DNA of 64,000 nucleotides from Ricordea florida. Lineage: Eukaryota > Cnidaria > Anthozoa > Corallimorpharia > Ricordeidae. This document shows positions 34,298-61,090 of the stretch, one piece after another; the stretch's first letter is position 1; the number at the start of each line of letters is the position of its first letter. The notes beneath the pieces were generated by a model that ran no database searches, had not been told where the DNA came from, and was given only the letters and a program-made list of their open reading frames with translations. The position numbers and the translations under genes are program-made. The stretch lies in assembly GCA_949710005.1 (NCBI GenBank), contig OX453274.1, positions 15,976,741-16,040,740 of the forward strand. Reading direction: 5' to 3'.

Positions 34298-36787
34298 ATG
34301 GTGTATTGTTGTGCTTTTGGATGCTCGAATGATTCTCGATCTGTTAGAAAGGAGCACGGAATAAGTTTCCACCGTCTTCCTACAGAAGGTTCTCTCTTGC
34401 AAGAGTGGTTAGCAAAAATATCCCGAGTTGACTTTGTGGTTACCAAAGATACTCGGTTGTGTTCCGATCATTTCGAGCCTGACTGCTTTGAACGTGATCT
34501 TAAAGCAGAACTACTTGGGTTGAAAGCAAAACGTACATTGAAGCCGGATGCTGTACCAACAATTTTTGTCCTTCGGCCAAGGAAGAAGCCTCGATTATCG
34601 TCTGAAAACCGTTTGCAGTACGGAGCAAAGAGAGAGGTAAGAATTTGAATGAATTTTAGCTACCTGCAACTCGAAGTACTTTTAATCTTAAATGTAGAGG
34701 GACGGCTCACGCTATTGCTGAAGTCACGGCATGTCTACTTTGGTTTGCAGTATATTGCATCGCTCACCACGACGCACCATGTTTCCCCTAATAATGTCGT
34801 GGAACTAAGTACCTCTGCTGAATGCAATTCAGCAGCTGCCTCCCAAACCTCCCAGGGTGCACATGCAGAAGCTGTAGCTGGTACCTCCAGTGAATGTGAC
34901 CCAGAAGTTGGCTAGCCAAATTCCCAGGGCATTGATCATAGTGAGGTTACATTCGAGGGGCCGCTGGAACAACTTAATTTGGAGCTGATGAAAGGAAATG
35001 AAACAAGTGTAGCGACACATAAGCTTCCCAGTGATGTTGGGTGTCACATTAACACACGAGGAGCACAACTTATGAGGAAATCAACCCAGTCCCAAACGTA
35101 CAAGTCTTCATTTGATGTGATCATGTGTGACCAAAGCACTCAAACTGAAGAAATCTACCACAGTGAGGGAGCGATCTCTCCTGATGAAGTGGACCCTTCC
35201 CATGAACAGGAAATCAATGTAGACAAGTCACCTCAAAAGGATCCATCTTACATACCAGTGAAAAATGATGAAATGTCAGATCACTCAAACAATTCACAGT
35301 CAGAAACTGAAGACTCGGAAACTGTCAACTCACAAGATGATATCAAGTTCCTTGTTTTCAAAGCAGAATTAGTTAAGCTTTTTAAAAGATGCCTCAAGTG
35401 TGGTGCAGGCATAAGGAAAAGGCATGAATCCACCCAGGGTTCTCAGTTGCTTGTTACACTTAAGTGCTTAAATGGCCACACCTACTTCTGGAACACCCAG
35501 CCAATGATGAAAGGGACGGCTGCTGGAAACCTTTTGATGTCCTCATCAATTCTTCTAAGTGGAGCCACCTTCACCAAGATAGCTACATTAGCTGAAATAT
35601 TAAGGTTATCCTTTTTCAGTGAGAAAACATTTTGTAACATTCAAGACTCATATTTATTTCCAGTAATTAATGAAGTTTGGGAGGGAGAACAAAATTCTGT
35701 TTTAAGCGAGTTGAAAGACACTGAGTTGTGGCTTTCTGGAGATGGTCGTTGAGACAGCCCAGGACACAACGCAAAATATGGCACCTACACGATGATTGAT
35801 CAAAGCAGCGACAAAATTGTTGACTTCCAAATTGTTCAGGTCAGTGAGGTGACCAGCAGTAATGCCATGGAGAGAGAGGGATTTAAAAGGTGCATGGAAA
35901 ATATTCAGGGTAAGGGGGCTAAAGTGAAGGTGGTGGCAACTGATCGCCATGTAAGCATTAAGTCTGACATGAAAAGAAACTACCCTGATGTGGATCACCA
36001 ATTTGATGTGTGGCATTTATCAAAAAGTGTCACTAAAAAACTAACTGAAAAGGCAAAGAAGAAAAGCTGTGGTGATCTTTTTCCCTGGATCAAGTCAGTC
36101 TCCAACCATCTCTGGTGGTGTTCTGACACATGCAATGGGGACAAGGAACTCTTACGGGAGAAGTGGATATCGATTGTCCACCACACTGCCAACATCCATT
36201 ACCGGGACAGTGCAGATCTTTATCATGAATGTCCCCACCCACCCATCCCAAGAAATGTGGCCAGAACCAAGAGATGGCTAAGGCCAGGCTCACCAGCACA
36301 TGAGGCATTAAAAGAAGTAATATTTGAAAAAACTTTACTGAAAGACATCCAGCAGTTGACACTCAGCTGCCACACTGGATCTTTGGAGGTGTACCACAGC
36401 GTCCAGACGAAATACCTCCCCAAACGACAGCACTTTTGGTATAAGGGCATGGTTGCTCGAACACAGCTAGCAGCCCTTGACCACAATGCCAACACCAGCA
36501 GAAACCATGCCACTGCTTCAAGGGGAGACAACAAGGGAGAGCTTCGCTACAAGGTGGTCTTCCCCAAAAGAAGTAAGGAGTGGATTGCTAAACCAATTAT
36601 GGAGAAGACAACAAGGGATCACGTACACCCACTGCTGGATGCAATTGTTGAAAGAAAGATTCAAGATGCTGCTGAAAGAAGTGCCACTCTCACAGCACCA
36701 CATATTCCACGCAACATTGCCTGCACCCCTCGGCCAGATAAAGCAGACGTTATTGCAAGGCACACCTCTAAATGTTCAGATGCTTAA
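34298..36787 (+). pseudogene. Kolobok-like transposase with N-terminal THAP domain, two nonsense codons
   Basis: Exon 1 is 34298-34636 (113 codons, phase 0), donor g|gtaagaa. The intron 34637-34750 ends ttgcag and exon 2 is 34751-36787. The THAP zinc finger has C4/C5, C9, C55 and H58 (CCAFGC, RLCSDHF), and it binds the transposon's DNA. Further on is a zinc-ribbon-like stretch (RCLKCGAG, LKCLNGHTYF), then the catalytic region with GDGR, VVATDRH and HQFDVWHLSKS, which give two plausible catalytic Asp. A mixed helical region and an Arg/Lys-rich tail follow. In-frame stops: TAG at 34913-34915, and TGA at 35750-35752 right after GDGR, where relatives have Cys. No frameshift. A recently dead copy. 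Confidence 0.85.
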
Positions 36788-40047: not shown

Positions 40048-40048
40048 G

Positions 40049-40468
40049 AAACGAAAAAACATTCAACATTTCTCCACCAATGGAGACACCAAAACCAGCG
40101 TCGTGAAACGATTCAATCGCACCTTGAAAGAAAGACTCTATCGATATTTTACCATCAACAGCACGTTGACTTTCTTACCCGTGTTGCAAGATTTGGTCTT
40201 GGGCTACAACCGTTCGTATTAGCGCAGTATCAAGATGCCCCCCAACAAAGTGACTGCAAGTAATCAACAAGAAGTGTGTAACAACTTGTACGCCAAACGT
40301 TTGAACGTTACGCGTGTCAAACCAAAGTTTAAAGTAAATGATCGTGTGAGACTCAGTAAGAAGTTAATAACCTTTAAGAAAGGTTACCTACCTGGTTGGA
40401 CGGAAGAAGTGTTTATAGTATCCAGAGTCGTTCCCGGAAGTGTGATCACCTACAAAATCACAGAGTAG
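40049..40468 (+). pseudogene. Polinton-type integrase, C-terminal half, inactivated
   Basis: Recognisable by KRFNRTLKERLYRYFTINST, LQDLVLGYNRS and the C-terminal SH3/chromo-like FKVNDRVRLSKK...FKKGYLPGWTEEVF typical of Polinton integrases. The residue that is normally the catalytic Glu (VVERF in relatives) is Lys here (codon at 40106-40108). There is also an in-frame TAG at 40220-40222. The first two catalytic Asp lie in the missing 5' half. The enzyme normally inserts the linear element DNA. This copy is dead. Confidence 0.85.
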
Positions 40469-40695
40469 TTGTATTGTGGGCATTCTGGCGCAATTTGATT
40501 TTCGATCGATTTTTTTGTGAAATCGAGGTTTTGGGCGTGGTCGATTTTGTCGGATGGGTGTGGCCAAAAAGTTTGTGCATAATTAATTGGTTTGATTTTC
40601 GATCGATGACTTTTTTCGTTTGGATCGTCGATGTCCTTTGGGGGGTGGGGTGGTGGTCGATTTGTTAAAGTGGGATTTTGGGTCGAGGGTTGCAC
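40469..40695 (+). other. Spacer upstream of the 143-aa gene
   Basis: G/T-rich with a repeated 'gattttcgatcgat' (near 40496 and 40594). Apparent long frames on both strands are compositional. Confidence 0.5.
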
Positions 40696-40719
40696 CGATT
40701 GGCATACGCAAACGAAATG
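40696..40719 (+). promoter_or_regulatory. 24-bp start-site motif, copy 1
   Basis: A sequence ending GGCATACGCAAACGAAATG places its last three bases as the start codon of the gene at 40717. The identical 24 bp occur at 41239-41262, ending in the next gene's ATG. Probably a conserved promoter or 5' UTR element of the Polinton-like element. Confidence 0.75.
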
Positions 40720-41148
40720 CAAAGAAACCTGCAAATTGAATTCAACACGGTTTTCAATTATATGGAGTTGGCTCTTTACAATTGCAACAAGCTACGTAAT
40801 GATGATTTCATTACCAAGATGAGGAACGAAATGGTTGGGTTCTTTCAACATTTTGCGCCCAACGACATTTGTGAACTTTTCAAAGAGGTCGTTTCGTTTG
40901 ACTATTTGGGCTACAAGTTTAGAGTATTAACCAAACGAAGGTTGGAGGACGTTTTGAACATTGAAGGTCTTTGTAGCGATTTTCATGAACGTTGTGTAGC
41001 TAATTATGGATCTGACGAGTACGAAATCATCACGGTTAATATCCGTTTGAATGTTAGTGATGACTTGGTTGCTAGTGATGATTATGGCAAATTTCAACGT
41101 TATGTAATCGACGATGCGTTGAAAGGCAAGTTGTGTGTCCAGACTTAA
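40717..41148 (+). CDS. Uncharacterised Polinton-like element protein, 143 aa
   Basis: The start at 40717 is chosen because it is the ATG at the end of the shared 24-bp motif. An earlier in-frame start would read through the motif. The product is mostly helical and acidic (MQRNLQIEFNTVFNYMELAL, MRNEMVGFFQHFAPNDICEL), with no membrane segment, Cys cluster or catalytic motif I recognise. The frame is intact and followed 28 bp later by a hairpin. It may be an early regulatory or accessory protein. I do not recognise the family. Confidence 0.7.
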   Translation: MQRNLQIEFNTVFNYMELALYNCNKLRNDDFITKMRNEMVGFFQHFAPNDICELFKEVVSFDYLGYKFRVLTKRRLEDVLNIEGLCSDFHERCVANYGSDEYEIITVNIRLNVSDDLVASDDYGKFQRYVIDDALKGKLCVQT

Positions 41149-41175
41149 TAGGGGTAGTCAAGTTTTAAGTGATCA

Positions 41176-41204
41176 TTTTTGTAACATGGATCGTGTTACA
41201 AAAA
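41176..41204 (+). terminator. Intergenic hairpin 1 (putative transcript 3'-end signal)
   Basis: TTTTTGTAACA pairs perfectly with TGTTACAAAAA, 11 bp, around the loop TGGATCG. It starts 28 bp after the stop codon of the 143-aa gene. The same hairpin, including the loop, recurs after the next gene. Confidence 0.75.
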
Positions 41205-41238
41205 GTATAAGATTGATATTTTAGGTCGGTGTGTGTAG

Positions 41239-41262
41239 CGATTGGCATACGCAAACGAAATG
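41239..41262 (+). promoter_or_regulatory. 24-bp start-site motif, copy 2
   Basis: Identical to 40696-40719, with the ATG of the 212-aa gene as its last three bases. Confidence 0.75.
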
Positions 41263-41898
41263 GCTTACAGAATGGACGAGACGACGAGTGAATTTGTGGG
41301 ATTGATACGTAGGTCTGACGTTGGTAGGGATTGGTATATGATTCCTCAAATTCCCTACACATACGCGATGAGAATGCCAACATCATTTGACTTCTTATGT
41401 GGCAACGTGGGTCGGTTAGGAGTTAATGATTTTCTGGAAGAACACAAATTAAGCATATTATATATAGTTTCTAGTTTCAACCAGTGTTTTGTTGAGAAGG
41501 TTCGTCTTGTGTTTACCATGGCTCATTTTCCTATTGACGACAACGAGATTGTTTATGAATATTCGAAAGACTTTGACAAGTTGTGTGCCAAAGACATCGC
41601 TGAGAAATTATGTAAGGGTGCTGAAGAGTTAGCTCTGTTTGGTATGATTGACGCTGACCTCGAACGGCCATATTCTGTCGACGAGCTTCTTATCGGGGAT
41701 CTTTCAGTTGCGGTGTACATAAGTTTCAAAGACGAGTTGTTGCATGAGGCTTGGAAGGGCATACACAAACGTACTTTTCAAAATGAAATTTGGGAAGAAC
41801 TAATGTCTGTTGCATGGCACCCAAGTAGGTTTATATACTGGTGTCTTGATTTGGAAGAGTTTCAAGAGGTGAAGGAGCGTTGGGGGACTCACTGGTAA
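41260..41898 (+). CDS. Uncharacterised Polinton-like element protein, 212 aa
   Basis: The start at the motif-linked ATG gives MAYRMDETTSEF. The interior is soluble and acidic. The C-terminus has EELMSVAWHPSRFIYWCLDL, resembling the 'AWHP...WC' tail found in proteins of several large DNA viruses, function unknown. The frame is intact. A hairpin follows 13 bp after the stop. It sits between the shared motif and the hairpin, like the gene before it, suggesting co-regulation. Confidence 0.7.
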   Translation: MAYRMDETTSEFVGLIRRSDVGRDWYMIPQIPYTYAMRMPTSFDFLCGNVGRLGVNDFLEEHKLSILYIVSSFNQCFVEKVRLVFTMAHFPIDDNEIVYEYSKDFDKLCAKDIAEKLCKGAEELALFGMIDADLERPYSVDELLIGDLSVAVYISFKDELLHEAWKGIHKRTFQNEIWEELMSVAWHPSRFIYWCLDLEEFQEVKERWGTHW

Positions 41899-41910
41899 TC
41901 ATACATGATA

Positions 41911-41938
41911 TTTTTGTAACATGGATCGTGTTACAAAA
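41911..41938 (+). terminator. Intergenic hairpin 2
   Basis: TTTTGTAACA / TGTTACAAAA, 10 bp, with loop TGGATCG identical to hairpin 1. It lies between the 212-aa and Cys-rich genes. Confidence 0.75.
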
Positions 41939-41954
41939 GTGTAATTGATGGCCG

Positions 41955-42401
41955 ATGGTTGTACTGTGGCGGTACACAATGGATTGTGATCAAGGGAAAT
42001 CAAGAAACCGTTGTCCGCATGGTAGACGGAAGTATTGTTGTAAAGAGTGTGGTGGTGGAGGGATTTGTCAACATGGAAGGCACAAGGCCGTTTGTAAAGA
42101 ATGTGGCGGTTCTCAGCTTTGTCCACATGGTAGACGGAAGTATTGTTGTAAAGAGTGTGGTGGCGGAGGTATATGTCAACATGATCGACAGAAACGTCAA
42201 TGTAAAGACTGTGGCGGTGCAGGTATCTGCTTACATGATAGACAAAAAAATAAGTGTAAAGTGTGTAGCCCTCATTGTTATTGTAAACATGGTAGAATTA
42301 AGACTAATAATAAGAAGTGGATGTGTCATTTGTGTAGTGGAGAGTATGTTTGCCGTCATATTAAGTTACGAAAGGGTTGCGAAGAGTGTGGGCCTTTGTG
42401 A
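41955..42401 (+). CDS. Cys/His-repeat protein, putative zinc-binding, about 140-148 aa
   Basis: Six to seven tandem units of the form C-x-H-[GD]-R-x(3-4)-C-x2-C: CPHGRRKYCCKECGGGG, ICQHGRHKAVCKECGG, another CPHGRRKYCCKECGG, ICQHDRQKRQCKDCGG, ICLHDRQKNKCKVC, then a looser C-terminal pair. Each unit could bind one zinc. Similar 'ICxHGRxKxxCxxCGG' repeats occur in proteins of large DNA viruses and algae, perhaps nucleic-acid binding (inference). The start may be 41955 or 41979 (MDCDQGK). At DNA level the repeats are near-identical, so copy number may vary. A hairpin follows 15 bp after the stop. Confidence 0.8.
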   Translation: MVVLWRYTMDCDQGKSRNRCPHGRRKYCCKECGGGGICQHGRHKAVCKECGGSQLCPHGRRKYCCKECGGGGICQHDRQKRQCKDCGGAGICLHDRQKNKCKVCSPHCYCKHGRIKTNNKKWMCHLCSGEYVCRHIKLRKGCEECGPL

Positions 42402-42415
42402 TGTATCCAAAGACA

Positions 42416-42440
42416 TTTGTAACGCGCTTCACGTTACAAA
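42416..42440. terminator. Intergenic hairpin 3, shared by convergent genes
   Basis: TTTGTAACG / CGTTACAAA, 9 bp, loop CGCTTCA (7 nt). The stem core GTAAC/GTTAC matches hairpins 1 and 2 but the loop differs. It lies between the stop of the Cys-rich gene (plus) and the stop of the SLOG gene (minus), so it can serve both transcripts. Confidence 0.75.
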
Positions 42441-42454
42441 AGTTCACTTAATCA

Positions 42455-42838
42455 TTAGACATAAACGACTATAACTTCTCTATTGTATTTCCTAGCCAAC
42501 TTAATAGCGGATTTGGTACCTGGCGAGTAAATACAGGAGGGTAAGGCCAATACATGCGTTGCACACTCCATGATCGCTCTATTGCGAATTGGCCCAGCCG
42601 CCTTGCCATAATAGTCCCATTGAGGTTCAAACGCTTTGAATGGGATCTCCTTTTCAGTGGCAAAATCTCTGGCCAGTTCATCAACTCCTTCTGCACCCCC
42701 AGACACAATCAATTGTATGTCTGAGAGATCCAGCTTCCATTTCTTGAGGGCTTTACGTATTTGCTCTTTCAAGAAGGACATGTCATTGAAGTACCTGCTG
42801 CCAACGATTGCCAATGATGTCATGATTTGCGAGGCCAT
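42455..42838 (-). CDS. SLOG-superfamily (YspA / DUF2493-like) nucleotide-binding protein, 127 aa
   Basis: A Rossmann-like small protein: SLAIVGSRYF at the N-terminus, IVSGGAEGVDELARDFA (glycine-rich nucleotide loop), YYGKAAGPIRNRAIME and SPGTKSAIKLARK. These match the SLOG family that includes bacterial YspA and DprA/LOG relatives and binds nucleotide-like ligands. Related proteins occur in phages, where the role is unclear. The ATG at 42838 begins MASQIMTS. A second Met six residues in is possible. Intact. It lies 26 bp downstream of the 511-aa gene, so possibly co-transcribed. Confidence 0.85.
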   Translation of the reverse strand: MASQIMTSLAIVGSRYFNDMSFLKEQIRKALKKWKLDLSDIQLIVSGGAEGVDELARDFATEKEIPFKAFEPQWDYYGKAAGPIRNRAIMECATHVLALPSCIYSPGTKSAIKLARKYNREVIVVYV

Positions 42839-42864
42839 GATCTATGGATTGGCAATTTCATTTT

Positions 42865-44400
42865 TTATCTGAAGAGCATCCAAGCGGCAATTCCAACTCC
42901 AACGATTAACAGTATCAGGTTGGTTTCATGATTGGTATTTGTTTCTTCTTTGATTTCAGGGCGAGGATGAATCGTTGGTGTTGTTGTTGGTCGCGTAGTC
43001 TCTACAATTGCATGTGGCAACTTGACCTTTGAAGACCCCAGATTATGGTTGATCCCCACAGTCTTAGTCTCCAGGTTTATGTTTGTGTTGACACCAAATT
43101 TCATCCCATCAGTGGCCTTCATGAGGTTGTTGTTATACCCGATCACACTCTCCGTGTTTATGATCATGTTACTGGGCATCAACCACACTCCAGGAGCAAT
43201 GGCCAAATCAAGTCTTAATTTAGCCTCTTGAGTCGCCAGTTGATACCTTTGGATCGAACTCGAGATGTCGTTCTCGATCACACTACTCTCAAACAGGGCC
43301 AAGAATTCTTGTTGAGTTTCAATTGCTCCGCCACCCGTGCCCACAATCGAGTTTCTAGTGTTGACTTGAGCCCCCAACACACAGTAAACAAAGGCTTCAG
43401 CAGACCGATTCAACCTGCCTAGCCCAGCCTTGGTGAGTCCATAGCCACTCGTTGGTATGAACCAAGCATACTTGTAATCAGCAAAGTCATCATTACGGAT
43501 GAATGAAATGAGGTCGCCCTTTTCCTTCTTACCCCCATCATCAGCGAATTTGCCACCTTCACCAGGCCATTGGTCGGCTCCATCGTCATAGTTTCTTACC
43601 ATATGGACGTTTTGGTATCCCCCACCAACTCCATGGTACCCAGCCCCATAATCGATGAATATGTCACCCAAACCCCCGTTTCGTCCACCTTTCCATCTAA
43701 AGTCAGAGTTGTTTGAGATGCCAAATTCAGCGCACAATCGTTGATAAGCGACTTTGCTGTAAGGGTTGTTGTTGATTACAAAGGGTTGCTCATCAGGCAG
43801 TGGAAGACTCAGTTCATACAATATTCGTCTTATGGTGAAGTATACATGAAACTTGATGAAGCTACTCACGACTTTGGGGTAGTTGAGGCTCTCGAAGGGG
43901 CTAATCCCACAGCCAGAGGTCGCACACCACACTGCAAAGTTAAGCTGTTGTGGCCAGTAGTTCATGTCGGGGGCGTTCAACCACTTTCGACTTTGTTTCC
44001 CAAACTTGAAAGTTACAACTTGGGAGGCGAAAATATTACGCATCTTGGCGGTGAATTTCTTCGTATTGGACACGTATATGTCCAGGGAGGTCAGCATGTT
44101 TGTGGTGTTACTTGTGGGTTCGTCAAAGTCAACGGCGGGTATCGGGTAGTATCGTTTGGTCATGGTTAGGCTTGGCGGGAAGGAGTTCAGTGCGGGCAGT
44201 CCAAGATCAGTCCAGAGTCGCGATTTCAAACTTGGTTGCATACCATCAGTCCATGTCTTGCCAGTGGGGTCATCATAGGACATGACTGTCGTACCGTTAT
44301 CTTTCCATCTAACGTACCCCCCATATTGATCGTTCACAAATTTGAACTGGTCAAGGTCGGCCTTTGGATACTTATTTCTGAAGTCATCGAGTAAGCCCAT
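42865..44400 (-). CDS. Large putative virion-type protein with C-terminal membrane anchor, 511 aa
   Basis: ATG at 44400. The N-terminal ~70 residues (LLDDFRNKYPKADLDQFKF, WKDNGTTVM, LKSRLWTDLGL) are a domain shared with the neighbouring 157-aa protein. A large middle part is rich in aromatic and Gly residues (LNFAVWCATSGCGISPF, FTIRRILYELSLPLPDEQPF, AWFIPTSGYGLTKAGLGRL) and in repeated Asn/Thr beta-type segments. A Pro/Thr-rich linker leads to a terminal hydrophobic helix (LILLIVGVGIAAWMLF). The longest intact gene here. Size and position among small membrane and putative capsid genes suggest a structural or membrane fusion/attachment role, but I recognise no family. It has a putative promoter motif 33 bp upstream. 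Confidence 0.75.
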   Translation of the reverse strand: MGLLDDFRNKYPKADLDQFKFVNDQYGGYVRWKDNGTTVMSYDDPTGKTWTDGMQPSLKSRLWTDLGLPALNSFPPSLTMTKRYYPIPAVDFDEPTSNTTNMLTSLDIYVSNTKKFTAKMRNIFASQVVTFKFGKQSRKWLNAPDMNYWPQQLNFAVWCATSGCGISPFESLNYPKVVSSFIKFHVYFTIRRILYELSLPLPDEQPFVINNNPYSKVAYQRLCAEFGISNNSDFRWKGGRNGGLGDIFIDYGAGYHGVGGGYQNVHMVRNYDDGADQWPGEGGKFADDGGKKEKGDLISFIRNDDFADYKYAWFIPTSGYGLTKAGLGRLNRSAEAFVYCVLGAQVNTRNSIVGTGGGAIETQQEFLALFESSVIENDISSSIQRYQLATQEAKLRLDLAIAPGVWLMPSNMIINTESVIGYNNNLMKATDGMKFGVNTNINLETKTVGINHNLGSSKVKLPHAIVETTRPTTTPTIHPRPEIKEETNTNHETNLILLIVGVGIAAWMLFR

Positions 44401-44432
44401 CTTCTATCCAGAATTTGGGTAGAAGGGTTCAA

Positions 44433-44441
44433 ACGTTTAAG
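44433..44441 (-). promoter_or_regulatory. CTTAAACGT motif upstream of the 511-aa gene
   Basis: The minus strand has CTTAAACGT 33 bp before the ATG. It matches CTTAAAAGT upstream of the 157-aa and 200-aa genes. Candidate shared promoter. Confidence 0.4.
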
Positions 44442-44458
44442 CCATTAGAGGCATGTGA

Positions 44459-44932
44459 TTAATCAAGAAGGAATGACGACATGACACGAAAAACTTCAAG
44501 CACAGCACACACCGTCAAAACTTTTATTCCAAAATTTAATGTGTATTTTATTTTTTCAACGTCTTCTTCTGCTCTTTCAACACTTTCTTCCAGTCTTTCA
44601 ACATTTTCTTCTGCTTTTGCCAAATCACACTCCAATTGATTTCTAGTTTGACTGTTTTCCATGGTTATGTCATTAGTATGTATTACTTTTAAGCCACTAG
44701 GTTGTGACTCATCAATCAATCCTAAATCTATCCATAATAGTCTTTTCAAAGAGGGTGGTAAATCATCAATACATGTTTTGTCAGTGGGGTTCTCAGACAT
44801 GATTGTTTTTCCATTATAGCCCCACGTAATGTAACTTCCAGATCGGACATTACAAAGTCTGAATTTATAACGTTTAGCCTTTGGATACTTGTTTCTGAAA
44901 TCACATATTAAGTCCACCGGTATTGGCAGCAT
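44459..44932 (-). CDS. Small paralogue of the 511-aa protein's N-terminus with coiled coil and tail anchor, 157 aa
   Basis: ATG at 44932 (MLPIPVDLICDF). Residues about 10-70 repeat the domain DFRNKYPKA..., WGYNGKTIM, SLKRLLWIDLGL of the 511-aa gene next door. A heptad-like acidic coiled coil follows (NVERLEESVERAEEDVEKI), then a short hydrophobic C-terminus (VLTVCAVLEVFRVM). The upstream regions of the two genes are also alike (a shared 'ttctacccaaatt'), so this gene looks like a partial duplication of its neighbour that kept the regulatory sequence. Function unknown. Intact. Confidence 0.7.
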   Translation of the reverse strand: MLPIPVDLICDFRNKYPKAKRYKFRLCNVRSGSYITWGYNGKTIMSENPTDKTCIDDLPPSLKRLLWIDLGLIDESQPSGLKVIHTNDITMENSQTRNQLECDLAKAEENVERLEESVERAEEDVEKIKYTLNFGIKVLTVCAVLEVFRVMSSFLLD

Positions 44933-44961
44933 GGTCAAGTAATTTGGGTAGAAGAGTTTAA

Positions 44962-44970
44962 ACTTTTAAG
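44962..44970 (-). promoter_or_regulatory. CTTAAAAGT motif upstream of the 157-aa gene
   Basis: 30 bp before the chosen ATG, with the same flanking 'ttctacccaaatt' as the 511-aa gene. Confidence 0.4.
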
Positions 44971-45010
44971 ACTATTTTGGACTAGTATTTGTTTTGCTCG
45001 TATATGATAG

Positions 45011-45613
45011 TTATGGTCCTCCTTTTAGTTCTTTGAGGATTTCTTCGCGTACTCTCTGCCTCAGTACCAATGGGTCCTCTCCACTCACATTTTTTTGGGC
45101 CTTAGCCCGTATCTCAGCCTTGAGCTTTTCGAATTTCTTGAGTTCGTCCACGATCAACGAGAATTCTGAGTCAGAGATCGTATTGTCACGAAGGGCTTTG
45201 GACACCAGGTCTTCAATGGTGTTTATCTTGGATCTGGCCAGTGTGATGGTGTTTTGATGCTTCACGGCTTTCTGGGACAGTCTCTTGGATATTTGTTGAC
45301 ACGCTATGGATGCGCACACAAACACACCACTCACCACGCCCAACGGTACAGATGCGACGATTCCGACACCACTAAGCGACGTGCCCAGGCCGCCAGCCGC
45401 CAAGACGCAAGACATTATACCACAGGTCGAGCTTACATTCATGAGTGTGCCCTTGGATCGGTTGTATTTTTTGAGTACTGTCTCGTAGTGGTTTAATTCA
45501 GACTTTAGCTTGTTCAAGGCATCACAACATTGTTGAAGCCTGAATGATGGTCCATCAGTGGGAGGAGGCGCAGTGGGTTCCAAGTTAGGGTAAATCGCCT
45601 TATATTCCCCCAT
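45011..45613 (-). CDS. Putative membrane/coiled-coil protein, 200 aa
   Basis: ATG at 45613 (MGEYKAIYPNLEPTAPPP, a proline-rich start). A helical region (CDALNKLKSELNHYETVLKK) is followed by two adjacent hydrophobic segments rich in Gly/Ala (IMSCVLAAGGLGTSLSGVGI and ASVPLGVVSGVFVCASIACQ), then a long charged helical tail (DELKKFEKLKAEIRAKAQ). Looks like a small virion or host-membrane protein. Family not recognised. Intact. CTTAAAAGT lies 20 bp upstream. Confidence 0.7.
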   Translation of the reverse strand: MGEYKAIYPNLEPTAPPPTDGPSFRLQQCCDALNKLKSELNHYETVLKKYNRSKGTLMNVSSTCGIMSCVLAAGGLGTSLSGVGIVASVPLGVVSGVFVCASIACQQISKRLSQKAVKHQNTITLARSKINTIEDLVSKALRDNTISDSEFSLIVDELKKFEKLKAEIRAKAQKNVSGEDPLVLRQRVREEILKELKGGP

Positions 45614-45632
45614 TTTGGACTGAGGATCACTT

Positions 45633-45641
45633 ACTTTTAAG
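45633..45641 (-). promoter_or_regulatory. CTTAAAAGT motif upstream of the 200-aa gene
   Basis: Identical nonamer to that at 44962-44970, 20 bp before the ATG. Confidence 0.4.
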
Positions 45642-45644
45642 ATG

Positions 45645-46277
45645 TTATCTGAACCGTAAACTGAATGTGATGGGGGAACCCTTCAGATCAAGTTTCTTCC
45701 ATCCAATGTCGAGGATGCTTAAGTCGAAGTGGGTTAGGATACTCTCATGGTTTTGGACTGGCATGGCCGGGTAATCCTGTGATGGTATGTTGGCAAGGAG
45801 GTGGGAAGGTGAGAGTTTCACGAGGTCGCCATACTTAGTCTCATTCACATATGACGACTTATTGTCCACTAGACTGCACAAAAGTCTCAGCGGCTCCTTA
45901 ATCTGTATGTTTATGGGGTACAGCTTTCCAGGGGTTACGATTTCAGGCAACCCAAGAGCAACTTGGAGACCTCTTGTGAGTTTAATGTTGAAATCCTTGT
46001 TGGAGTACAGGTAATCAACGGTGTCAGTCTCAACGATAGACAGCTTGGCGTTATCTGTATCTTTCAGAAATATTGCGTGTATGCCACGTAGAGAGTATGT
46101 ACCGGGTTGAACTATTATGATGGCTTGATTATCCTCTTTGAGAAAGCCCTCTCGATTCTTGAAGTTGACCAATCGTTTGGGTACAATACAGTCGAGGAGT
46201 TGGATCTCCCGAACCTCTTCCAATGGGGGATCCAAATACACCCTGGATTCAGACTCGTACATAGTAATACTCAACAT
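45645..46277 (-). CDS. Putative minor-capsid (penton-like) beta-rich protein, 210 aa
   Basis: ATG at 46277 (MLSITMYESE). Predicted beta strands throughout: VREIQLLDCIVPKRLVNFKN near the start, AIIIVQPGTYSLRG, LRLLCSLVDNK, and the end ILDIGWKKLDLKGSPITFSL. The arrangement (early strand 'IQLLDC', G-T-Y turn, closing strand with 'L-x-x-x-G-x-P') recalls single-jelly-roll penton-type proteins of Polintons and adintoviruses. This is an inference from pattern, not an established match. Intact. Confidence 0.55.
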   Translation of the reverse strand: MLSITMYESESRVYLDPPLEEVREIQLLDCIVPKRLVNFKNREGFLKEDNQAIIIVQPGTYSLRGIHAIFLKDTDNAKLSIVETDTVDYLYSNKDFNIKLTRGLQVALGLPEIVTPGKLYPINIQIKEPLRLLCSLVDNKSSYVNETKYGDLVKLSPSHLLANIPSQDYPAMPVQNHESILTHFDLSILDIGWKKLDLKGSPITFSLRFR

Positions 46278-46286
46278 GTTGTTTGA

Positions 46287-46475
46287 TTACTTCTTCGCCA
46301 TCTTTAAACTTCTATAGTCAGCCTCTGAGAGGAATCGAGTTTTGATGATGCCACAGCTGGAACATTTACACTTCATCATCGGCCTTCCTTTGGCTGTTTT
46401 AGCAAAGGTTTCACTACCAGGCACACAATCAGTCAGCTTTTTCTCTTTGACACAATAGCTCTTCATTTGATTCAT
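46287..46475 (-). CDS. Small Cys-rich basic protein, DUF5679-like, 62 aa
   Basis: The start (MNQMKSYCVKEKKLTD) is chosen because its ATG overlaps the upstream gene's TGA as ATGA. Contains YCVK, then KTAKGRPMMKCKCSSCGIIK, like the DUF5679 pattern (YCVKC...NGRP...G.CP.CG) of small proteins in Polintons, adintoviruses and giant viruses. The first CxxC has lost its second Cys (CVKEKKLTDC). Lys-rich, so may bind DNA inside particles (inference). Ends at 46287. Confidence 0.7.
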   Translation of the reverse strand: MNQMKSYCVKEKKLTDCVPGSETFAKTAKGRPMMKCKCSSCGIIKTRFLSEADYRSLKMAKK

Positions 46476-47184
46476 GTACGTTTCCTTTTTAACTCTTCTA
46501 TGAAGTAAAGCACAACCGCCATTATTAACAGCCAAGCATGTTTCCCCAGGAATGAGACGACCTCTCCAGCAGTCTTGAATAGAAAGCTTACAATAGCGCC
46601 CACCATCCCAGGCAGCAATTCGCCAAGTTTCTTCCCAAGGTTTTTTAGCCCATCACCAACACCCTTGCCCAATCTTGAGAGCCCTTTGGAGAGGTTGGAG
46701 ACTATGACACCAATGACCACTCCAACGGCACTCATGACAGCAAAGACTGTGAATCCGTATTTCTTGAAGACGGCCTTTACACGATCCCGCAATGACATTC
46801 GTTCCTGTATCTCCTCATTCTCACCCTCCAAATTGGCTATCTCCTCCTCTCGCTCACCAATTTCCCTCTCCAGAGTCTCTATCTTACTTTCTTCCTCTGG
46901 GGTCTTCAGCGGCTTATCTCTTTGGAATCTTAGCGTCTCCTTCATTTTGGTGAGTAATCCCTTTTTCTCAGCGATCACACCATCATTAGCTTCCACAACT
47001 TCTTCTGCTCTTGGGCCTAGATTGTTTTTGATAGTGTCTGGCAATCCATCATTCAATTCATCATCACCTTTGAACAACACATAAGGTTTTGATCCTTTCC
47101 TAAGCAATTTGACGACTACTTGTTTGAATTCATTCAGTTTGGCTGTAAACTTGGACGTATCAACTTTGGGGAATCTTGATTTTT
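46472..47184 (-). pseudogene. Polinton-like membrane protein with coiled coil, 5' end disrupted
   Basis: The frame is open from about 47184 to TGA at 46472-46474 but has no good start. A one-base expansion in a C-run near 47168 shifts the extreme N-terminus, and the upstream sequence is LINE ORF1. Domains: a basic start (LLRKGSKPYVLFKGDDEL), an acidic coiled coil (TLEREIGEREEEIANLEGEN), a hydrophobic helix (FAVMSAVGVVIGVIV), an amphipathic Gly/Lys-rich stretch (LGKGVGDGLKNLGKKLGELL) and two more hydrophobic helices (VGAIVSFLF, AWLLIMAVVLYFI). A membrane-active virion protein is plausible. The ATGA overlap with the next gene suggests co-transcription. Confidence 0.65.
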
Positions 47185-47204
47185 TTCACCCGATCTTTCT
47201 TCAG

Positions 47205-47947
47205 CTCATTTGCTTTCTTCATAATGTGTTTCCTGTAGAGAGTAAGGTTTTCGTTGATAAATATACCTTGGACTTCGCGATCGCTGCCGTAGAGGAACCA
47301 GGGAAAATGTCGGCGAGGTTGATTTCTTTCAGTTCAGTTCGCTTCTTGTTAGAGTTTTTTTTGGCTAATGAATTTCACTATGATGCTTTGGGATTATTTT
47401 TACCAGAGTACAATTTGTGAGATATATCGATGTCTTCTGGCGAAATAGGCACTTGGAGTTGTTCGCCGAGTTTAATCATCACATCCTCGGTGGAGGTGTA
47501 CATCTCCTCCGGAATTCCATGAATCTCCAAACTGTTTTTACGCGTATACTGTTCCAGGTTATCTTGCTGGCCGTAAAGTTCATTAATTTCATTTAGCTGT
47601 TTTTCTGTTTTCTTTTTCAAGGATTCTACTGACTTAGTTAACTGGTCGGTTACCTTTTCTGCTCCTGTCAGGGCTTGTTTTAAGGTGTTCACTTCTGATG
47701 ACTGCTTGTTGAACGAGGCTTTTAACTCCCTCAATTCGTTCGCTACATTTCTATTTTCCGCTCGCATTTCCTGGATGGTTTGCTGGACATTTTGAAGTAG
47801 TTGCACAACTTCTTTCAGACTAATCTCATTTTCTTTGCTAGACTGGTGACCTGGCGACGTTTATTTCTTCTTCGACTGAACCTCTCTCGCCTCTTTTATG
47901 TTTCCTTCCCTTACCAGACATAAAAAAACACTATTAGCTAAGTGATG
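47205..47947 (-). pseudogene. LINE ORF1 (L1/CR1-type coiled-coil RNA-binding protein) fragment
   Basis: Starts near 47947 (MSGKGRKHKRGE) with a frame change near 47850, then a coiled coil (ELRELKASFNKQSSEVNTLK; TKSVESLKKKTEKQLNEIN) and the RNA-binding part (NSLEIHGIPEE, EDIDISHKLYSG). After a stop and frame change at about 47378 the C-terminal part is recognisable (GIFINENLTLYRK, near 47235-47270). No ORF2 sequence follows. It joins the Polinton-like membrane protein gene near 47205, so it interrupts that element. Confidence 0.7.
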
Positions 47948-47984
47948 TCAGCATTCAGAGTGGACTTACTAGCTAAAATTTCTG

Positions 47985-48860
47985 TCGAGGACGGATTTGA
48001 ATTCTCCGCTTAAAGGACACGTCCGCCCTCAACGGTGGCACGCATGCTCTCCCCCTACTGCCAAGTTAATGTTAAATTCTTTTTGGGGTAAGTTTGGCGA
48101 AAACCTCCACAAGAAAACGACCGAAGCCGTCACCACCCCAGCTCATCTCTTCCGTCTCGTGTCCGACACCCTCTTCGACATTTACGCTGTACGCATCTGC
48201 AACGATGAAATCTTAGAAGTGGACTACTCCAATCTGAAGGACGATCAACCCGACAATGGGCGTATTAACATCTTCGTGGCTGCCTTTACAACTTGTTAGG
48301 CCCGATTGAAGCTGTACTCATATCTTCAACAACTTCAACAACAAGCACTCTACTTGGACACGGACTCAGTCATATATTCATGTAAACCAGGTGAACCTGA
48401 CATTCCATTAGTTGATTACTTGGGGGACATGACAGATAAGTTAGAGGAAGATGACTACATCGTGGACTTCACGTCAGCTGGGCCAAGGAATTACGGCTAC
48501 AGAACAAAGAATGGCAAAGTCTGCTGTAAAGTAAGAGGGTTCGCGCTGAATATAAGAGGTCAAGAGCAGTTGAACTATCAAATCATGAGACAAAATCTCT
48601 TGGAGGAGTTGACAAATCCACTCGACGAAAGGCGAAACATCGAGGTCGTTATGCCGTACTTCTTTACACGTGATTCAGCCACAAAACGTCTACGCGTGGG
48701 TTCCCGTACAAAACGTTACGGATAAGTCTTTGACAAACGCGTCGTGGACCATGACACATTTCAGTCATTTCCTTGCGGGTATCACCTTTAACAACCCAGG
48801 ATTGTTCGGGGCCTGAATGATCAGGACATGGCTAACGTGGAAGCCCTGTTAGAGTTGTAA
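47985..48860 (+). pseudogene. Protein-primed type B DNA polymerase, C-terminal third, three nonsense codons
   Basis: Motif B-like AKLMLNSFWGKFGEN (near 48056), motif C YLDTDSVIYS (near 48350; Asp-Thr-Asp), and the C-terminal blocks DYLGDMTDKLEEDDYIVDFT, GPRNYGYRTKNGKVCCKVRG and GLNDQDMANVEALLEL to TAA at 48858-48860. In-frame stops at 48297-48299 (TAG), 48723-48725 (TAA) and 48789-48791 (TAA). The exonuclease domain, terminal-protein-priming region and motif A are gone. This replicates the linear element in Polintons. Here it is a relic. Confidence 0.88.
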
Positions 48861-49465
48861 ACAGTTTTATAAAGTAGTTTTTTTCAATTTCCTCGAGGTT
48901 CAGCAACGCACCTGGCACTTGTAAGGAGTGTACATGGTTTTTTACCTCATAGTATGTATATCATACCATGAGGTATAATAATGGTTGGATTTGTCACTCC
49001 ATTCCCGTAAGACAATTAGTTTATGCATTAAATCCGCATTAAATGTGAATTAAACAGGTTCCCCCTATCTCCCCTACTGGGTTTGGTTTCGTCCACAAAG
49101 TCGTGCAATTTTTTTATGTTCACATATGTGGGGGGAGGGGGTGAGACAAAGCGGCAGCACATGTTTACAAAATGGCGTCTGTTGTGTTGTGGCCGACGCA
49201 AAGATTGTCAAGGCGGGTGTTCGTTCCTTTCGCTCCATCTTTGATCAAAATACACTGTTGAAGATCTCGCGAACGAACAGGAAATGTGTTCAAGAATGCT
49301 CGAGGGCAAAGAAATGGGTTTTAAAGTCTTAAAAGTGACGATGTCTCCAAGTTGGACGACGAGTAATCGATCAGTCGTAGCAAGAGTGCACAAAACGAAC
49401 TATTCGGAATGAACACTTCATGGCCTGCAACTCAACTCAATAATGTGTTTTGATTTTGTAGTCTT
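48861..49465. other. Spacer with a 13-bp-arm palindrome
   Basis: 'acctcatagtatg' / 'cataccatgaggt' around TATAT at 48947-48977 forms a hairpin with one mismatch. 'cataccatgaggta' recurs at 50174-50187. No gene seen. Confidence 0.5.
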
Positions 49466-50150: not shown

Positions 50151-50499
50151 AGCACTTCATGGAATAATTACCACATACCATGAGGTAGCTCGAAGGAGCT
50201 TTTGATTTTAGTTTTTCAGCTACGCTCTAGGCACTGTTGTGTCTTGGTAAAATAGCGTAAAAAGTAGTTCCCAGCTACAAAGAGTCGAGGTGGCACCCCG
50301 ATGATACCCATCCTGGAGTTTCACCGCTGCCATATAAATATAACTGGTGTTTATAAACATAACAGATGTCTGTAAGCAACTTATTGCACACACTTCTTTA
50401 TAAGAATGTATTGTCGCATTCCCCACTCTAGTCGATTCTTTTATTTAGTCCACTTGATTGTAAACTCTCTTCTACGTAAGAGTTATTTTTTTCCGTTTA

Positions 50500-51250
50500 A
50501 GAGCGGCCGTCTGTAAATATCGAGAATTCGGCGTCAAAACTGAAATTTCGAATTCCTTCATATTTGATCAGAAAAACCCCTTTGGTAAACATTTATGAAA
50601 ATTATAATCAAAGTTTCCAAAGAGTTTCCTTTCTGGAGCCGACATAAAAAATTCGTGCCAATTAGCACTTTTTCAAATCACTTGGAAATAAAAACGGGTC
50701 AACTTAACGCGATAATCTTTCGCAGGTGAGTGAGGTATCACCAGATCAACCCGAAAATGTAAAACTATTTGAAAATACTGATTTTTCACACATCGGGTTT
50801 AAAGCGCCGAGATTCCTAGTCTTAGCGCATAGGAAAACGCTGAAAATTAAGGAAACTTTGAAAGTGAAAATCGCATACTGGTACATCGAAATTCATAACA
50901 AAATTTACATCAGAGGAAAGCTCTATTGCTGTTTTTGAACATATAAAAAAATCTGGCTTGGGCAACTTTGGATCCGAAGGCCACCGCTTGAGAGAGATAA
51001 ACGCATTGTCAATTTTCATGTGTTACGTAAAAGGAATTGTAACTGTCACGCAAGCATAAGAAAACACATTTTATAAAATCTTAGGTGTGAATGTTGAAAA
51101 TCTTTTCTCAGATACAATATGTAAGGCTAAAATGAATCTTTAATGTTTTTTTTATCTATTGTAGCTGAAAACTTCGGATAACGTGATAAAAAATTAGTAA
51201 CCAGAAAAAGGTCAAGATCAATGTCAAATGTAAACAACACGACAGTAGAA
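50500..51250 (+). repeat. Large inverted repeat, left arm
   Basis: Matches the reverse complement of about 54130-54957 along its length with small indels. Landmarks: 'agcggccgtctgtaaatatc', 'gtgaggtatcaccagatcaa', 'aaactttgaaagt' and 'gtaaacaacacga'. It contains an ORF of about 70 codons (50726-50938; PRFLVLAHRKTLKIKETLKV) preserved in the other arm with amino-acid changes. Whether it is translated is doubtful. Confidence 0.85.
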
Positions 51251-54129: not shown

Positions 54130-54957
54130 ATTGAGTTGTATTCAGTGTTACTTTCGTGTTGTTTACGTGACACGGATTTTGACCTTTCAATTGTTCCGGT
54201 TACGAATTTAGTAGTTGTTTTACCTGGAATTTTCAGCTACAATGGATAAAAATATATGAGAGATTCATTAAGCCTTAAATTTCGCATTTGAGAAATGGTT
54301 TTCTACATCTACAACTAAGATATTATAAAACGTATCTAAAAATGTGCTTTCTTGTGCTTGCGTGACAGTTGCAATTCCATTTATGTAAGGACATGAAAAT
54401 TCACAATGCGTTTACCTCTCTCAAGTGGTGGCCTTTGAATTGCCCAAGCCAGATTTTTTATATGTTCAAAAACAGCAATAGAGCTTTCCTCTGATGTAAA
54501 TTTTGTTATGAAATTCGATGTACCAGTATGCGATTTTTACTTTCAAAGTTTCCTTAATTTTCAGCGTTTTCCTATGCGCTAAGACTAGGAATCTCGGCGC
54601 TTTAAACCCGATGTGTGAAAAATCAGTATTTTTAAATATTTTTACATTTTCGGGTTGATCTGGTGATACCTCACTCACCTGCAAAAGATTATCGCGTTAA
54701 GTTGACCCATTCTTATTTCCAAGTGATTTGAAAAAGTGCTAATTGGCACGAATTTCTTATGTCGGCTGTGACGTTGACACGGCATTTCACTTTTTGCCCA
54801 GTTTCTCCATAAAGGAAACTCTTTGGAAACTTTGATTATAATTTTCATAAATGTTTTACCAAAGGGATTTTTCTTACCAAATATGAAGGAATTCGAAATT
54901 TCAGTTTTGACGGCGAATTCTCGATATTTACAGACGGCCGCTCTTAATATCCGTGTT
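54130..54957 (-). repeat. Large inverted repeat, right arm
   Basis: Reverse-complement partner of 50500-51250. It contains about 45 bp (near 54765-54805) absent from the left arm, and the matching ORF on the minus strand (54466-54684). Confidence 0.85.
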
Positions 54958-56282: not shown

Positions 56283-57073
56283 TTGCTATTGTCAACAAAC
56301 AATAGCAGAGAAAATATAATTGGCAGAACACAGGGTTCAGGTGAAGAGCAACGGGAAAGAGAGCGGAAGAGAGCAAGAATTAACTGGGGAAGAATGAGCG
56401 ACGAAGATCTCCAAAGAAGGCGAGCTCGGGAAACAGAAAGGAGACGAAATTATAGCGAAGAACGCCGACAAGCAGAAAGAGTCCGGGCTCGAGAAAACTT
56501 ACAAAATGTTAACGAAGAACGCCGGGAAGGGGAAAGACTCCGTGCTGTGGAAAACAGACAAAATTGTAGCGAAGAATGCCGAGAAGCGGAAAGACTCTGT
56601 GCTGTGGAAAACAGACTAAATTTTAGCGAAGAATCCCGAGAAGCGGAAAGACTCTGTGCTGTGGAAAACAGACAAAATTTTAGCGAAGAACGCCGAGAAG
56701 CGGGAAGACTCCGTGCTGTGGAAAACAGACAAAATTGTAGCGAAGAATGCCGAGAAGTGGAAAGACTCTGTGCTGTGGAAAACAGACAAAATTTTAGCGA
56801 AGAACGCCGAGAAGCGGAAAGACTCCGTGCTGTGGAAAACAGACAAAAGTGTAGCGAAGAATGCCGAGAAGCGGAAAGACTCCGTGCTGTGGAAAACAGA
56901 CAAAATTGTAGCGAAGAACGCCGAGAAGCGGAAAGACTCCGTCCTGTGGAAAACAGACAAAATTTTAGCGAAGAATGCCGAGAAGCGGAAAGACTCTGTG
57001 CTTTGGGAAACACAAAATTTTAGCGAAGAACGCCGAGAAGCGGAAAGACTCCGTGCTGTGGAAAACAGACAAA
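56283..57073 (+). pseudogene. Arg/Glu-rich repeat protein gene built from a 57-bp minisatellite (left part)
   Basis: ATG at 56283. The first 60 residues are non-repetitive and charged (EEQRERERKRARINWGRM, DLQRRRARETERRR). From about 56450 there are about 11 copies of a 57-bp unit encoding the 19-residue repeat RQNFSEERREAERLRAVEN with C/R/F variants, predicted alpha-helical and highly charged. A two-base-shorter unit near 57005 shifts the frame (stop at 57021-57023). The array is split by the ISL2EU insertion at 57074 and continues at 60462. Parent gene unknown. Similar charged N-terminal arrays occur in some transposon proteins. Confidence 0.6.
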
Positions 57074-57098
57074 ATAGACCCTTCTCCAAAATGGCGCC

Positions 57099-57131
<33 letters not shown>

Positions 57132-57139
57132 GTTTCATT

Positions 57140-57418
57140 ATGACGGAAAGCGTAGAGAGAAATGTGACGCAGAATGGAAACTTCGAGAGATCTATTTTAG
57201 AGTGTTCGAATAAGTGGCTCGAAAGCAAGAAGGGAAGGAAAAAAGGAGACAAGTACTACCTGGAAACGTACCTTGAGAATGTCAAGATATTGTTTTCTGA
57301 GGATTGCTGCGTCGTAAAAGCAAGATGTTATCGCTCGATGAGGAAAACCGAAGCACCACATAAACTAAGAATTGTATTTGATAGTTTGGAAGAAGACGGC
57401 ATCGAAGTTACCACTCAA

Positions 57419-60340: not shown

Positions 60341-60461
60341 TTTTTGTAAATCTTCCTACAAAAAATGCCGGAAATCGATCTCTGCGACTCCAGATGTCAA
60401 CAAACTATACCCCCAGTTTCCAGACCTCTCTCGGCCGGCGCCATTTTGGAGAAGGGTCTAT

Positions 60462-61090
60462 TGTAGCGAAGAACGCCGAGAAGCGGAAAGACTCCGTCCT
60501 GTGGAAAACAGACAAAATTTTAGCGAAGAATGCCGAGAAGCGGAAAGACTCTGTGCTTTGGGAAACACAAAATTTTAGCGAAGAACGCCGAGAAGCGGAA
60601 AGACTCTGTGCTGTGGAAAACAGACAAAATTTTAGCGAAGAACGCCGAGAAGCGGGAAGACTCCGTGCTGTGGAAAACAGACAAAATTGTAGCGAAGAAT
60701 GCCGAGAAGTGGAAAGACTCTGTGCTGTGGAAAACAGACAAAATTTTAGCGAAGAACGCCGAGAAGCGGAAAGACTCCGTGCTGTGGAAAACAGACAAAA
60801 GTGTAGCGAAGAATGCCGAGAAGCGGAAAGACTCCGTGCTGTGGAAAACAGACAAAATTGTAGCGAAGAACGCCGAGAAGCGGAAAGACTCCGTCCTGTG
60901 GAAAACAGACAAAATTTTAGCGAAGAATGCCGAGAAGCGGAAAGACTCTGTGCTTTGGGAAACACAAAATTTTAGCGAAGAACGCCGAGAAGCGGAAAGA
61001 CTCCGTGCTGTGGAAAACAGACAAAATTGTAGCAAAGAACGCCGAGATACCCTGCTAAAAGCCATGCACGAGAGAAACCTCGGCTCGTAG
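60462..61090 (+). pseudogene. 57-bp minisatellite gene, right part after the ISL2EU insertion
   Basis: About 10 further 57-bp units. About 400 bp here (60597-61015) repeat 56646-57060 almost exactly, variants included, so a block of seven units was duplicated. The frame ends CSKERRDTLLKAMHERNLGS at 61090. Short units with a two-base loss (near 60560 and 60960) break the frame. Confidence 0.65.

What the first reader, a model, noticed from the sequence alone, without database searches (positions are those of the whole stretch)
40049..48860. Polinton-like element with an unusual gene set
Integrase and protein-primed PolB remnants bracket a set of intronless genes: two motif-linked unknown genes, a Cys/His repeat protein, a SLOG protein, a 511-aa putative virion protein, membrane proteins and a DUF5679-like protein. 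No recognised double-jelly-roll capsid, packaging ATPase or protease. Either these were deleted or this is a distinct lineage.
Basis: partly seen in the sequence, partly recalled or inferred. Interest (0 to 1): 0.8.

Follow-up and report, generated by a model that had tools for sequence, protein, structure and literature searches.

The report
Half a polinton inside another polinton

Summary
The genes are real, but the brackets are not theirs. Window 40464-47180 is the left part of a polinton family (Y) whose 511-aa gene has at least 84 copies in this genome. Similarity to six other copies starts at 40464 in five of six, at an AGTAGT terminal repeat, and stops at 47180 in all six. Beyond that point those copies carry a predicted capsid gene, an A32-type packaging ATPase, an rve integrase and a polymerase-like gene. 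Five copies seen to both ends measure 15.6-17.9 kb with 5-bp target duplications. The integrase remnant and the PolB remnant belong to another family (X); Y sits in X's integrase gene, and three X copies show the uninterrupted site. Y's right half was likely lost in a deletion that ran into a repeat. 'Deleted' is supported, 'capsid-less lineage' is not. Y looks recently mobile: terminal repeats differ at 0-11 of 240 sites within a copy, 8-34 between copies; dN/dS is low. A 200-aa membrane protein carries late-domain-like motifs. The 511-aa protein's fold stays unknown.

The parts
40048..40463 (+). Remnant of the integrase gene of polinton X (3' part before the chromodomain-like end), the insertion target of Y
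   Evidence: 11 other long DNA matches in the genome at 87-96%; three X copies continue past 40463 as X; not present beside the six Y copies
40459..40463 (.). CACAG, predicted left target-site duplication of Y (right partner lost)
   Evidence: 5-bp duplications at 5 of 5 Y copies seen to both ends; prediction for this copy
40464..40710 (.). Left terminal inverted repeat of Y, starting AGTAGT (about 245-265 bp)
   Evidence: inverted match at the right end of five copies
40717..41148 (+). 143-aa protein, predicted early gene, unknown function
   Evidence: starts at the shared leader; same length in four other copies; no family
41260..41898 (+). 212-aa protein, predicted early gene, unknown function
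   Evidence: starts at the shared leader; no family above cut-off
41955..42401 (+). 148-aa Cys/His repeat protein (54-nt units)
41178..42440 (.). Three palindromes TTTGTAAC..GTTACAAA at 41178, 41913, 42416, one after each left gene
   Evidence: 2-3 of them in each of six other copies
42455..42838 (-). 127-aa SLOG-family protein
   Evidence: PF10686 5.3e-11
42865..44400 (-). 511-aa protein with a C-terminal hydrophobic segment; predicted membrane-anchored virion protein, fold unknown
   Evidence: 890 relatives, 120 listed; at least 84 copies in this genome; hydropathy; poor model
44459..44932 (-). 157-aa protein: N-terminus resembling that of the 511-aa protein by eye, coiled coil, hydrophobic segment
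45011..45613 (-). 200-aa protein with a hydrophobic hairpin and N-terminal YPNL and PTAP (late-domain-like)
   Evidence: 69 relatives; motif counts
45645..46277 (-). 210-aa protein, predicted penton-like single jelly roll
   Evidence: 59 relatives; model pLDDT 79; fold matches
46287..46535 (-). DUF5679-like zinc-ribbon protein (82-aa ORF)
   Evidence: PF18930 8.5e-6, 26.3 bits against cut-off 27
46472..47180 (-). 3' part of a 314-aa gene (coiled coil, two hydrophobic segments), cut at 47180
47180..48054 (.). Part of a low-copy repeat (LINE-like by eye, no family hit), truncated at 47180, natural end at 48054
   Evidence: seven other copies; other copies run on past the left point and end at the same right point
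48055..48870 (+). 3' part of the PolB gene of polinton X
   Evidence: six other full-length DNA matches at 93-94%; PF03175 on one piece; paired with X integrase within 20 kb at 6 of 11 places

Best explanation
Window 40464-47180 is the left part of a polinton (family Y) lying inside the integrase gene of a second polinton (X), and its right half, which in other copies in this genome holds the packaging ATPase, the integrase, the predicted capsid gene and a polymerase-like gene, was likely lost in one deletion that ran into a neighbouring repeat. Shown: the common left end at AGTAGT, the break at 47180 in 6 of 6 comparisons, inverted terminal repeats and 5-bp target duplications at five complete copies, the uninterrupted target site in three X copies, and X integrase paired with X PolB elsewhere. 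Inferred: Y's integrase likely inserts the linear DNA and makes the 5-bp duplication; Y's polymerase likely copies it; the genes reading inward from both terminal repeats are likely early genes; the leftward block (predicted capsid, ATPase, penton-like and membrane proteins, 511-aa protein) is likely a virion operon. Low dN/dS and near-identical terminal repeats within copies suggest that the lineage replicated under selection until recently, as a virus or as a self-copying transposon. The window copy has no right end, integrase or polymerase and is likely immobile.
For: Left start and right stop of similarity; ends and duplications; genes beyond the break; ATPase at the expected place in 64 of 84 copies, 0 of 84 on the wrong side and 0 of 84 on the opposite strand; X integrase and PolB on one strand within 20 kb downstream at 6 of 11 places, three of them 12.1 kb apart; uninterrupted site in 3 of 3 X copies read; repeat truncated at 47180 but not at 48054; terminal-repeat differences; dN/dS.
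Against: The right-hand target duplication of this copy is lost, so its insertion cannot be closed. The capsid match passes its cut-off in one of two copies scanned (24.8 and 20.8 bits, cut-off 24); the integrase match is just under its cut-off (32.4 and 31.5, cut-off 32.6); the polymerase-like gene scored no polymerase family, only Rho_N and Endonuclease_7 above cut-off, and one of three motif patterns was not found. No protease was found. Five of 11 X integrase matches have no PolB within 20 kb. One deletion is the simplest path, not a shown one.
Confidence: 0.88

Rival explanations
1. A distinct polinton lineage without the usual capsid, ATPase and protease; the flanking integrase and PolB are its own.
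For: In the window copy no such gene is recognised; Y lacks a recognised protease also in complete copies.
Against: Complete copies carry ATPase, integrase and a Capsid_N protein; the flanking genes are X's and are interrupted by Y's end.
Confidence: 0.04
2. A short non-autonomous derivative of Y (left part only) that spreads as such, helped by complete copies.
For: 20 of 84 copies of the 511-aa gene have no listed ATPase at the expected place.
Against: The window copy has no right terminal repeat; its right break abuts a truncated repeat; in six of six copies examined Y continues past this point.
Confidence: 0.04
3. A gene cluster of polinton origin kept by the host for its own use.
For: The window Y genes, apart from the one cut at 47180, are open; dN/dS in the family is low.
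Against: 75 of 84 copies of the 511-aa gene and 146 of 150 of the ATPase are open too, so an open frame needs no host use, and selection seen between copies is explained by replication of the element.
Confidence: 0.03

Closest known systems
Polintons/Mavericks (Polintoviruses; PMC4028283 and PMC8097293, passages read)
   Same: 15-20 kb size, inverted terminal repeats with AGT ends, short target duplication, rve integrase, packaging ATPase, predicted capsid and penton-like proteins
   Different: 5-bp duplications in five of five copies, where the vertebrate elements have 6 bp; no protease found; polymerase-like gene with Rho_N and endonuclease VII domains that scores no polymerase family; a set of proteins with hydrophobic segments and a 511-aa family of unknown fold
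Meldviruses that join polinton-type enzymes to virion genes resembling those of larger viruses, such as Meld23486 (PMC11071296, sections 10 in part and 25 read)
   Same: Polinton-type integrase combined with an A32-type ATPase and a Capsid_N (large-DNA-virus type) capsid candidate
   Different: No sequence of those records was available here, so kinship was not tested
Mavirus penton (6g41, 6g42), Sputnik chain 3j26_N and PBCV-1 capsid chain 6ncl_a6
   Same: Predicted fold of the 210-aa protein; the mavirus match spans nearly its whole length
   Different: Fold-level match only, 9-18% identity, rmsd 6.0-6.7 for the virophage chains over 168-196 residues
Late domains of retroviral Gag (abstract of PMC2958808 in the listing)
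   Same: YPxL-like and PTAP motifs near one end of a membrane protein
   Different: Motifs only; binding untested, and a YxxPhi sorting signal fits the first motif as well

Membership tests
Polinton/Maverick (family Y, complete copies) | Inverted terminal repeats with AGT-type ends | tested here: met
   AGTAGT at both ends of five copies, about 245-265 bp
Polinton/Maverick (family Y, complete copies) | Short target-site duplication (5 or 6 bp, recalled from Pritham and colleagues; 6 bp in vertebrate Mavericks, PMC8097293) | tested here: met
   5 bp in 5 of 5 copies seen to both ends; not the 6 bp of vertebrate Mavericks
Polinton/Maverick (family Y, complete copies) | RVE-family integrase | tested here: met
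   PF00665 1.1e-7 and 2.2e-7 in two copies, bits just under the cut-off
[quoted passage not shown]
   1,185-codon open stretch with Rho_N and Endonuclease_7 and two polymerase-like motifs, but no polymerase family and no match to the third motif pattern
Polinton/Maverick (family Y, complete copies) | FtsK/A32-type packaging ATPase | tested here: met
   PF04665 1.9e-11; at least 150 copies
Polinton/Maverick (family Y, complete copies) | Double jelly-roll major capsid protein | tested here: inconclusive
   PF16903 above cut-off in one copy, below in another; no model made
Polinton/Maverick (family Y, complete copies) | Single jelly-roll penton protein | tested here: met
Polinton/Maverick (family Y, complete copies) | Adenovirus-like cysteine protease (found in 74% of polintons, PMC4028283) | tested here: inconclusive
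   No protease family in the ORFs scanned
Adintovirus (definition in PMC11071296) | Integrase with a C-terminal chromodomain | tested here: inconclusive
   Y integrase gave rve but no chromodomain family; X integrase ends in a chromodomain-like sequence by eye
Adintovirus (definition in PMC11071296) | PolB with OTU-like domain and a hexon recognisable by BLASTP | not tested
   No adintovirus reference sequences were at hand

The most novel reading that the evidence does not exclude
Family Y is a still-moving polintovirus lineage whose particles contain a membrane and leave the cell through the ESCRT machinery: its 200-aa membrane protein carries late-domain motifs (YPx-hydrophobic, in some members with PTAP or PSAP) as retroviral Gag does, and the 511-aa protein, conserved in hundreds of relatives, is a new class of membrane-anchored virion protein.
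Probability: 0.2. Interest if true: 0.75.

Novelty: new member of a known kind. Interest (0 to 1): 0.45.

Why it matters
It removes an apparent capsid-less polinton and puts a testable case in its place: one genome with at least 84 copies of the 511-aa gene and 150 of the ATPase gene of an 18-kb virus-like element, most of them open, and with terminal repeats identical over 240 bases in three of five copies examined. Whether polintons of animals still form particles is an open question (PMC8097293, abstract), and a lineage this recent and numerous is a good place to look. The late-domain-like motifs give a specific prediction of how such particles would leave cells, and the 511-aa family (890 relatives, no known fold) is a concrete target for structure work.

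Tried and rejected

YPx-hydrophobic in the 200-aa protein can also be a YxxPhi sorting signal. The 11 of 56 P[TS]AP are inflated by relatedness: 8 are close relatives of the window protein, 3 are distant. In this genome 6 of 6 other copies keep YPxL but only 4 of 6 PTAP (two have ATAP). A second, related polinton (Z) abuts the polymerase-like gene of the copy on C7, but its end could not be defined. Whether Y prefers other polintons as targets was not tested.

Dropped before counts: one search used 18 of 20 loci (two of another length); one search used 56 of 69 relatives as N-complete by a motif rule, and per gene 4-6 of 6 copies, those with an open frame listed; one search used the 120 listed of 890 relatives. 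Only the best candidates were scored (84 of 6012; 150 of 5024), so copy numbers are lower bounds.

Papers: PMC11071296 outline, section 10 parts 1 and 2 of 3, and section 25; PMC11071308 outline with abstract; PMC4028283, PMC8097293 and PMC4642659 passages; the rest search listings. The library search for polinton with ESCRT gave two papers, neither read and neither on this by title; DUF5679 gave none. Pritham and colleagues (5- or 6-bp duplications, high copy number in Trichomonas) is recalled, not read. The names LINE-like, chromodomain-like, late domain and polymerase motif for particular stretches are my reading by eye or recall; no call named them.
Full report
What was claimed.

The genes are there. 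The ORFs, the SLOG protein (PF10686 5.3e-11), the DUF5679-like protein (26.3 bits, cut-off 27), the Cys/His repeat protein and several proteins with hydrophobic segments were confirmed. The 511-aa protein has 890 database relatives; the 120 listed are 47-96% identical. The 210-aa protein has 59 relatives. Of 34 contig lengths among the nearer 511-aa relatives, 11 recur among the 210-aa relatives; shifting the lengths by 1-200 bases gives 0.12 on average and 2 at most. Of 86 lengths among the farther relatives none recurs. So the two genes travel together in other genomes, at least in the nearer group.

The window's own genome decides the case. It has 538 Mb in 48 contigs. The 511-aa gene has at least 84 copies, window copy included, the others 93-98% identical; 75 of 84 have no stop. 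I fetched pieces around six other copies. DNA similarity between the window and these copies begins at 40464 in five of six (in the sixth, C1, whose end is variant, at 40497) and ends at 47180 in six of six. At 40464 stands AGTAGT, and the same end occurs inverted at the far side of five copies. The five copies seen to both ends are 17,917, 17,676, 17,691, 17,620 and 15,555 bp long and show 5-bp duplications, read from the flanks printed: TCATA, CAAAT, CCCTT, CATAA, CAAGC. In the sixth (C7) the right side is cut by another element.

What the window copy lacks. To the right of the point matching 47180 the other copies hold a 314-aa gene (whose 3' part is the window's 211-aa ORF), several unknown genes, a 203-aa protein with a hydrophobic segment, an A32-type ATPase (PF04665 1.9e-11), a 389-411-aa capsid candidate (PF16903 1.8e-5, above cut-off, in one copy; 3e-4, below cut-off, in another), an integrase (PF00665 1.1e-7 and 2.2e-7, both just under the cut-off) and, on the other strand, a polymerase-like gene: an open stretch of 1,185 codons in one piece, with Rho_N 4.8e-7 and Endonuclease_7 2.8e-5. 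That stretch holds the strings KLMNNSVFG and FTDTDS, which I read as polymerase motifs from recall; a pattern for the third motif found nothing, and no polymerase family scored. One copy (C1) lacks some of the middle genes and the copy on C7 has a broken capsid frame. No protease family scored in the ORFs scanned. The ATPase gene has at least 150 copies, 96-100% identical, 146 of them without a stop. Of the 84 copies of the 511-aa gene, 64 have an ATPase copy on the same strand on the expected side, median 6.7 kb away; 0 of 84 on the wrong side, 0 of 84 on the opposite strand. Both lists are capped, so 64 is a lower bound. The window copy is one of the 20 without.

Whose are the brackets? The integrase DNA (40048-40463) gave no match in the pieces around the six Y copies, and Y's own integrase shows no similarity to it (best E 0.81; only the remnant could be compared). 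It has 11 other long matches in the genome. The PolB DNA (48055-48870) has six other full-length matches. At 6 of the 11 integrase places a PolB match lies downstream on the same strand within 20 kb, at three of them 12.1 kb away; at 5 of 11 none does. They thus form one family, X. In three X copies read across the site, the 25 bases before 40464 match at 25, 24 and 25 of 25, and the sequence then continues as X and not as Y; in two of the three, one frame is open through the whole stretch read and ends in a chromodomain-like sequence. Y therefore lies inside the coding sequence of X's integrase.

The right break. Between Y's break and X's PolB lie 875 bp of a low-copy repeat with seven other copies. 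In three copies compared, the repeat ends at the same right point as in the window but runs on to the left for hundreds of bases beyond the point where the window joins Y. So the repeat is truncated exactly where Y is, as expected if one deletion removed everything from inside Y to inside the repeat, the right half of Y and X's middle included. The single deletion is inference. The repeat looks like the 5' part of a LINE by eye; no family scored beyond coiled coils.

How recent and how selected. Terminal repeats of one copy differ at 0, 2, 0, 0 and 11 of 240 sites; repeats of different copies differ at 8-34 of 240 (15 comparisons, 5 of them with the window). So the copies diverged mainly before they were inserted. 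Median dN/dS: 511-aa 0.11 (18 loci, window included), ATPase 0.04, integrase 0.07, 314-aa 0.11, 200-aa 0.12, capsid candidate 0.14, 210-aa 0.27, 203-aa 0.36 (4-6 copies each). This is what an element replicating under selection leaves, whether as a virus or as a self-copying transposon. The loci for the 511-aa value were the best matches to the window protein and the other genes were taken only where open, both a bias towards low dN.

Late-domain-like motifs. The 200-aa protein begins MGEYKAIYPNLEPTAPPP and has two adjacent hydrophobic segments. Of 69 relatives, 56 count as N-complete by my rule; in their first 32 residues 50 carry YPx-hydrophobic (30 of them YPxL) and 11 P[TS]AP, against means of 2.9, 1.1 and 0.1 in 1,000 shuffles. 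Shuffles ignore relatedness; eight of the 11 are close relatives. In this genome 6 of 6 other copies keep YPxL and 4 of 6 PTAP. Such motifs recruit ALIX and ESCRT-I in enveloped viruses (abstract of PMC2958808, seen in the listing). A YxxPhi sorting signal is not excluded.

Gene signals. In the window each of the three left genes is followed by a palindrome TTTGTAAC..GTTACAAA (two or three of them in each of six other copies), and the first two begin at the same leader, which also occurs at the right terminal repeat of five copies.

Known kinds. Y meets the polinton features of inverted repeats with AGT ends, short target duplications, integrase and packaging ATPase; a penton-like protein is predicted, capsid and polymerase are probable, a protease was not found. 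Buck and colleagues describe animal meldviruses that join polinton-type enzymes to virion genes resembling those of larger viruses (PMC11071296, sections read), which is close to this gene set. High copy numbers of Mavericks in one genome are known from Trichomonas (recalled). I therefore call it a new member of a known kind.

Noticed in passing
L036 (G000:C7:8692500-8699529), base 640 in element orientation: The polymerase-like gene of this Y copy is cut by a second, related polinton (integrase 69% alike in DNA, a 1,523-aa ORF without family), so nesting of polintons is seen twice; the end of the second element was not found.
   Followed up: partly
41178-41202, 41913-41937, 42416-42440: A 25-nt palindrome follows each left gene of Y, the third shared with the facing SLOG gene; a possible transcript end signal.
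   Followed up: partly
44400-45650, upstream of minus-strand genes: Related stretches with CTTAAA stand upstream of the 511-, 157- and 200-aa genes, and TTTAAA upstream of the 210-aa and capsid-candidate genes; possibly a late promoter.
   Followed up: partly
50497-50950 and 54454-54947: Large inverted repeat, 91-97% complementary in pieces, with about 3.5 kb between the inner arms.
   Followed up: no
56330-57142 and 60453-61094: Two arrays of a 57-bp tandem repeat with an inverted pair of 56 bp between them.
   Followed up: no
35792-36787: Mutator-like transposase fragment (PF20700 7.6e-5, below cut-off).
   Followed up: no
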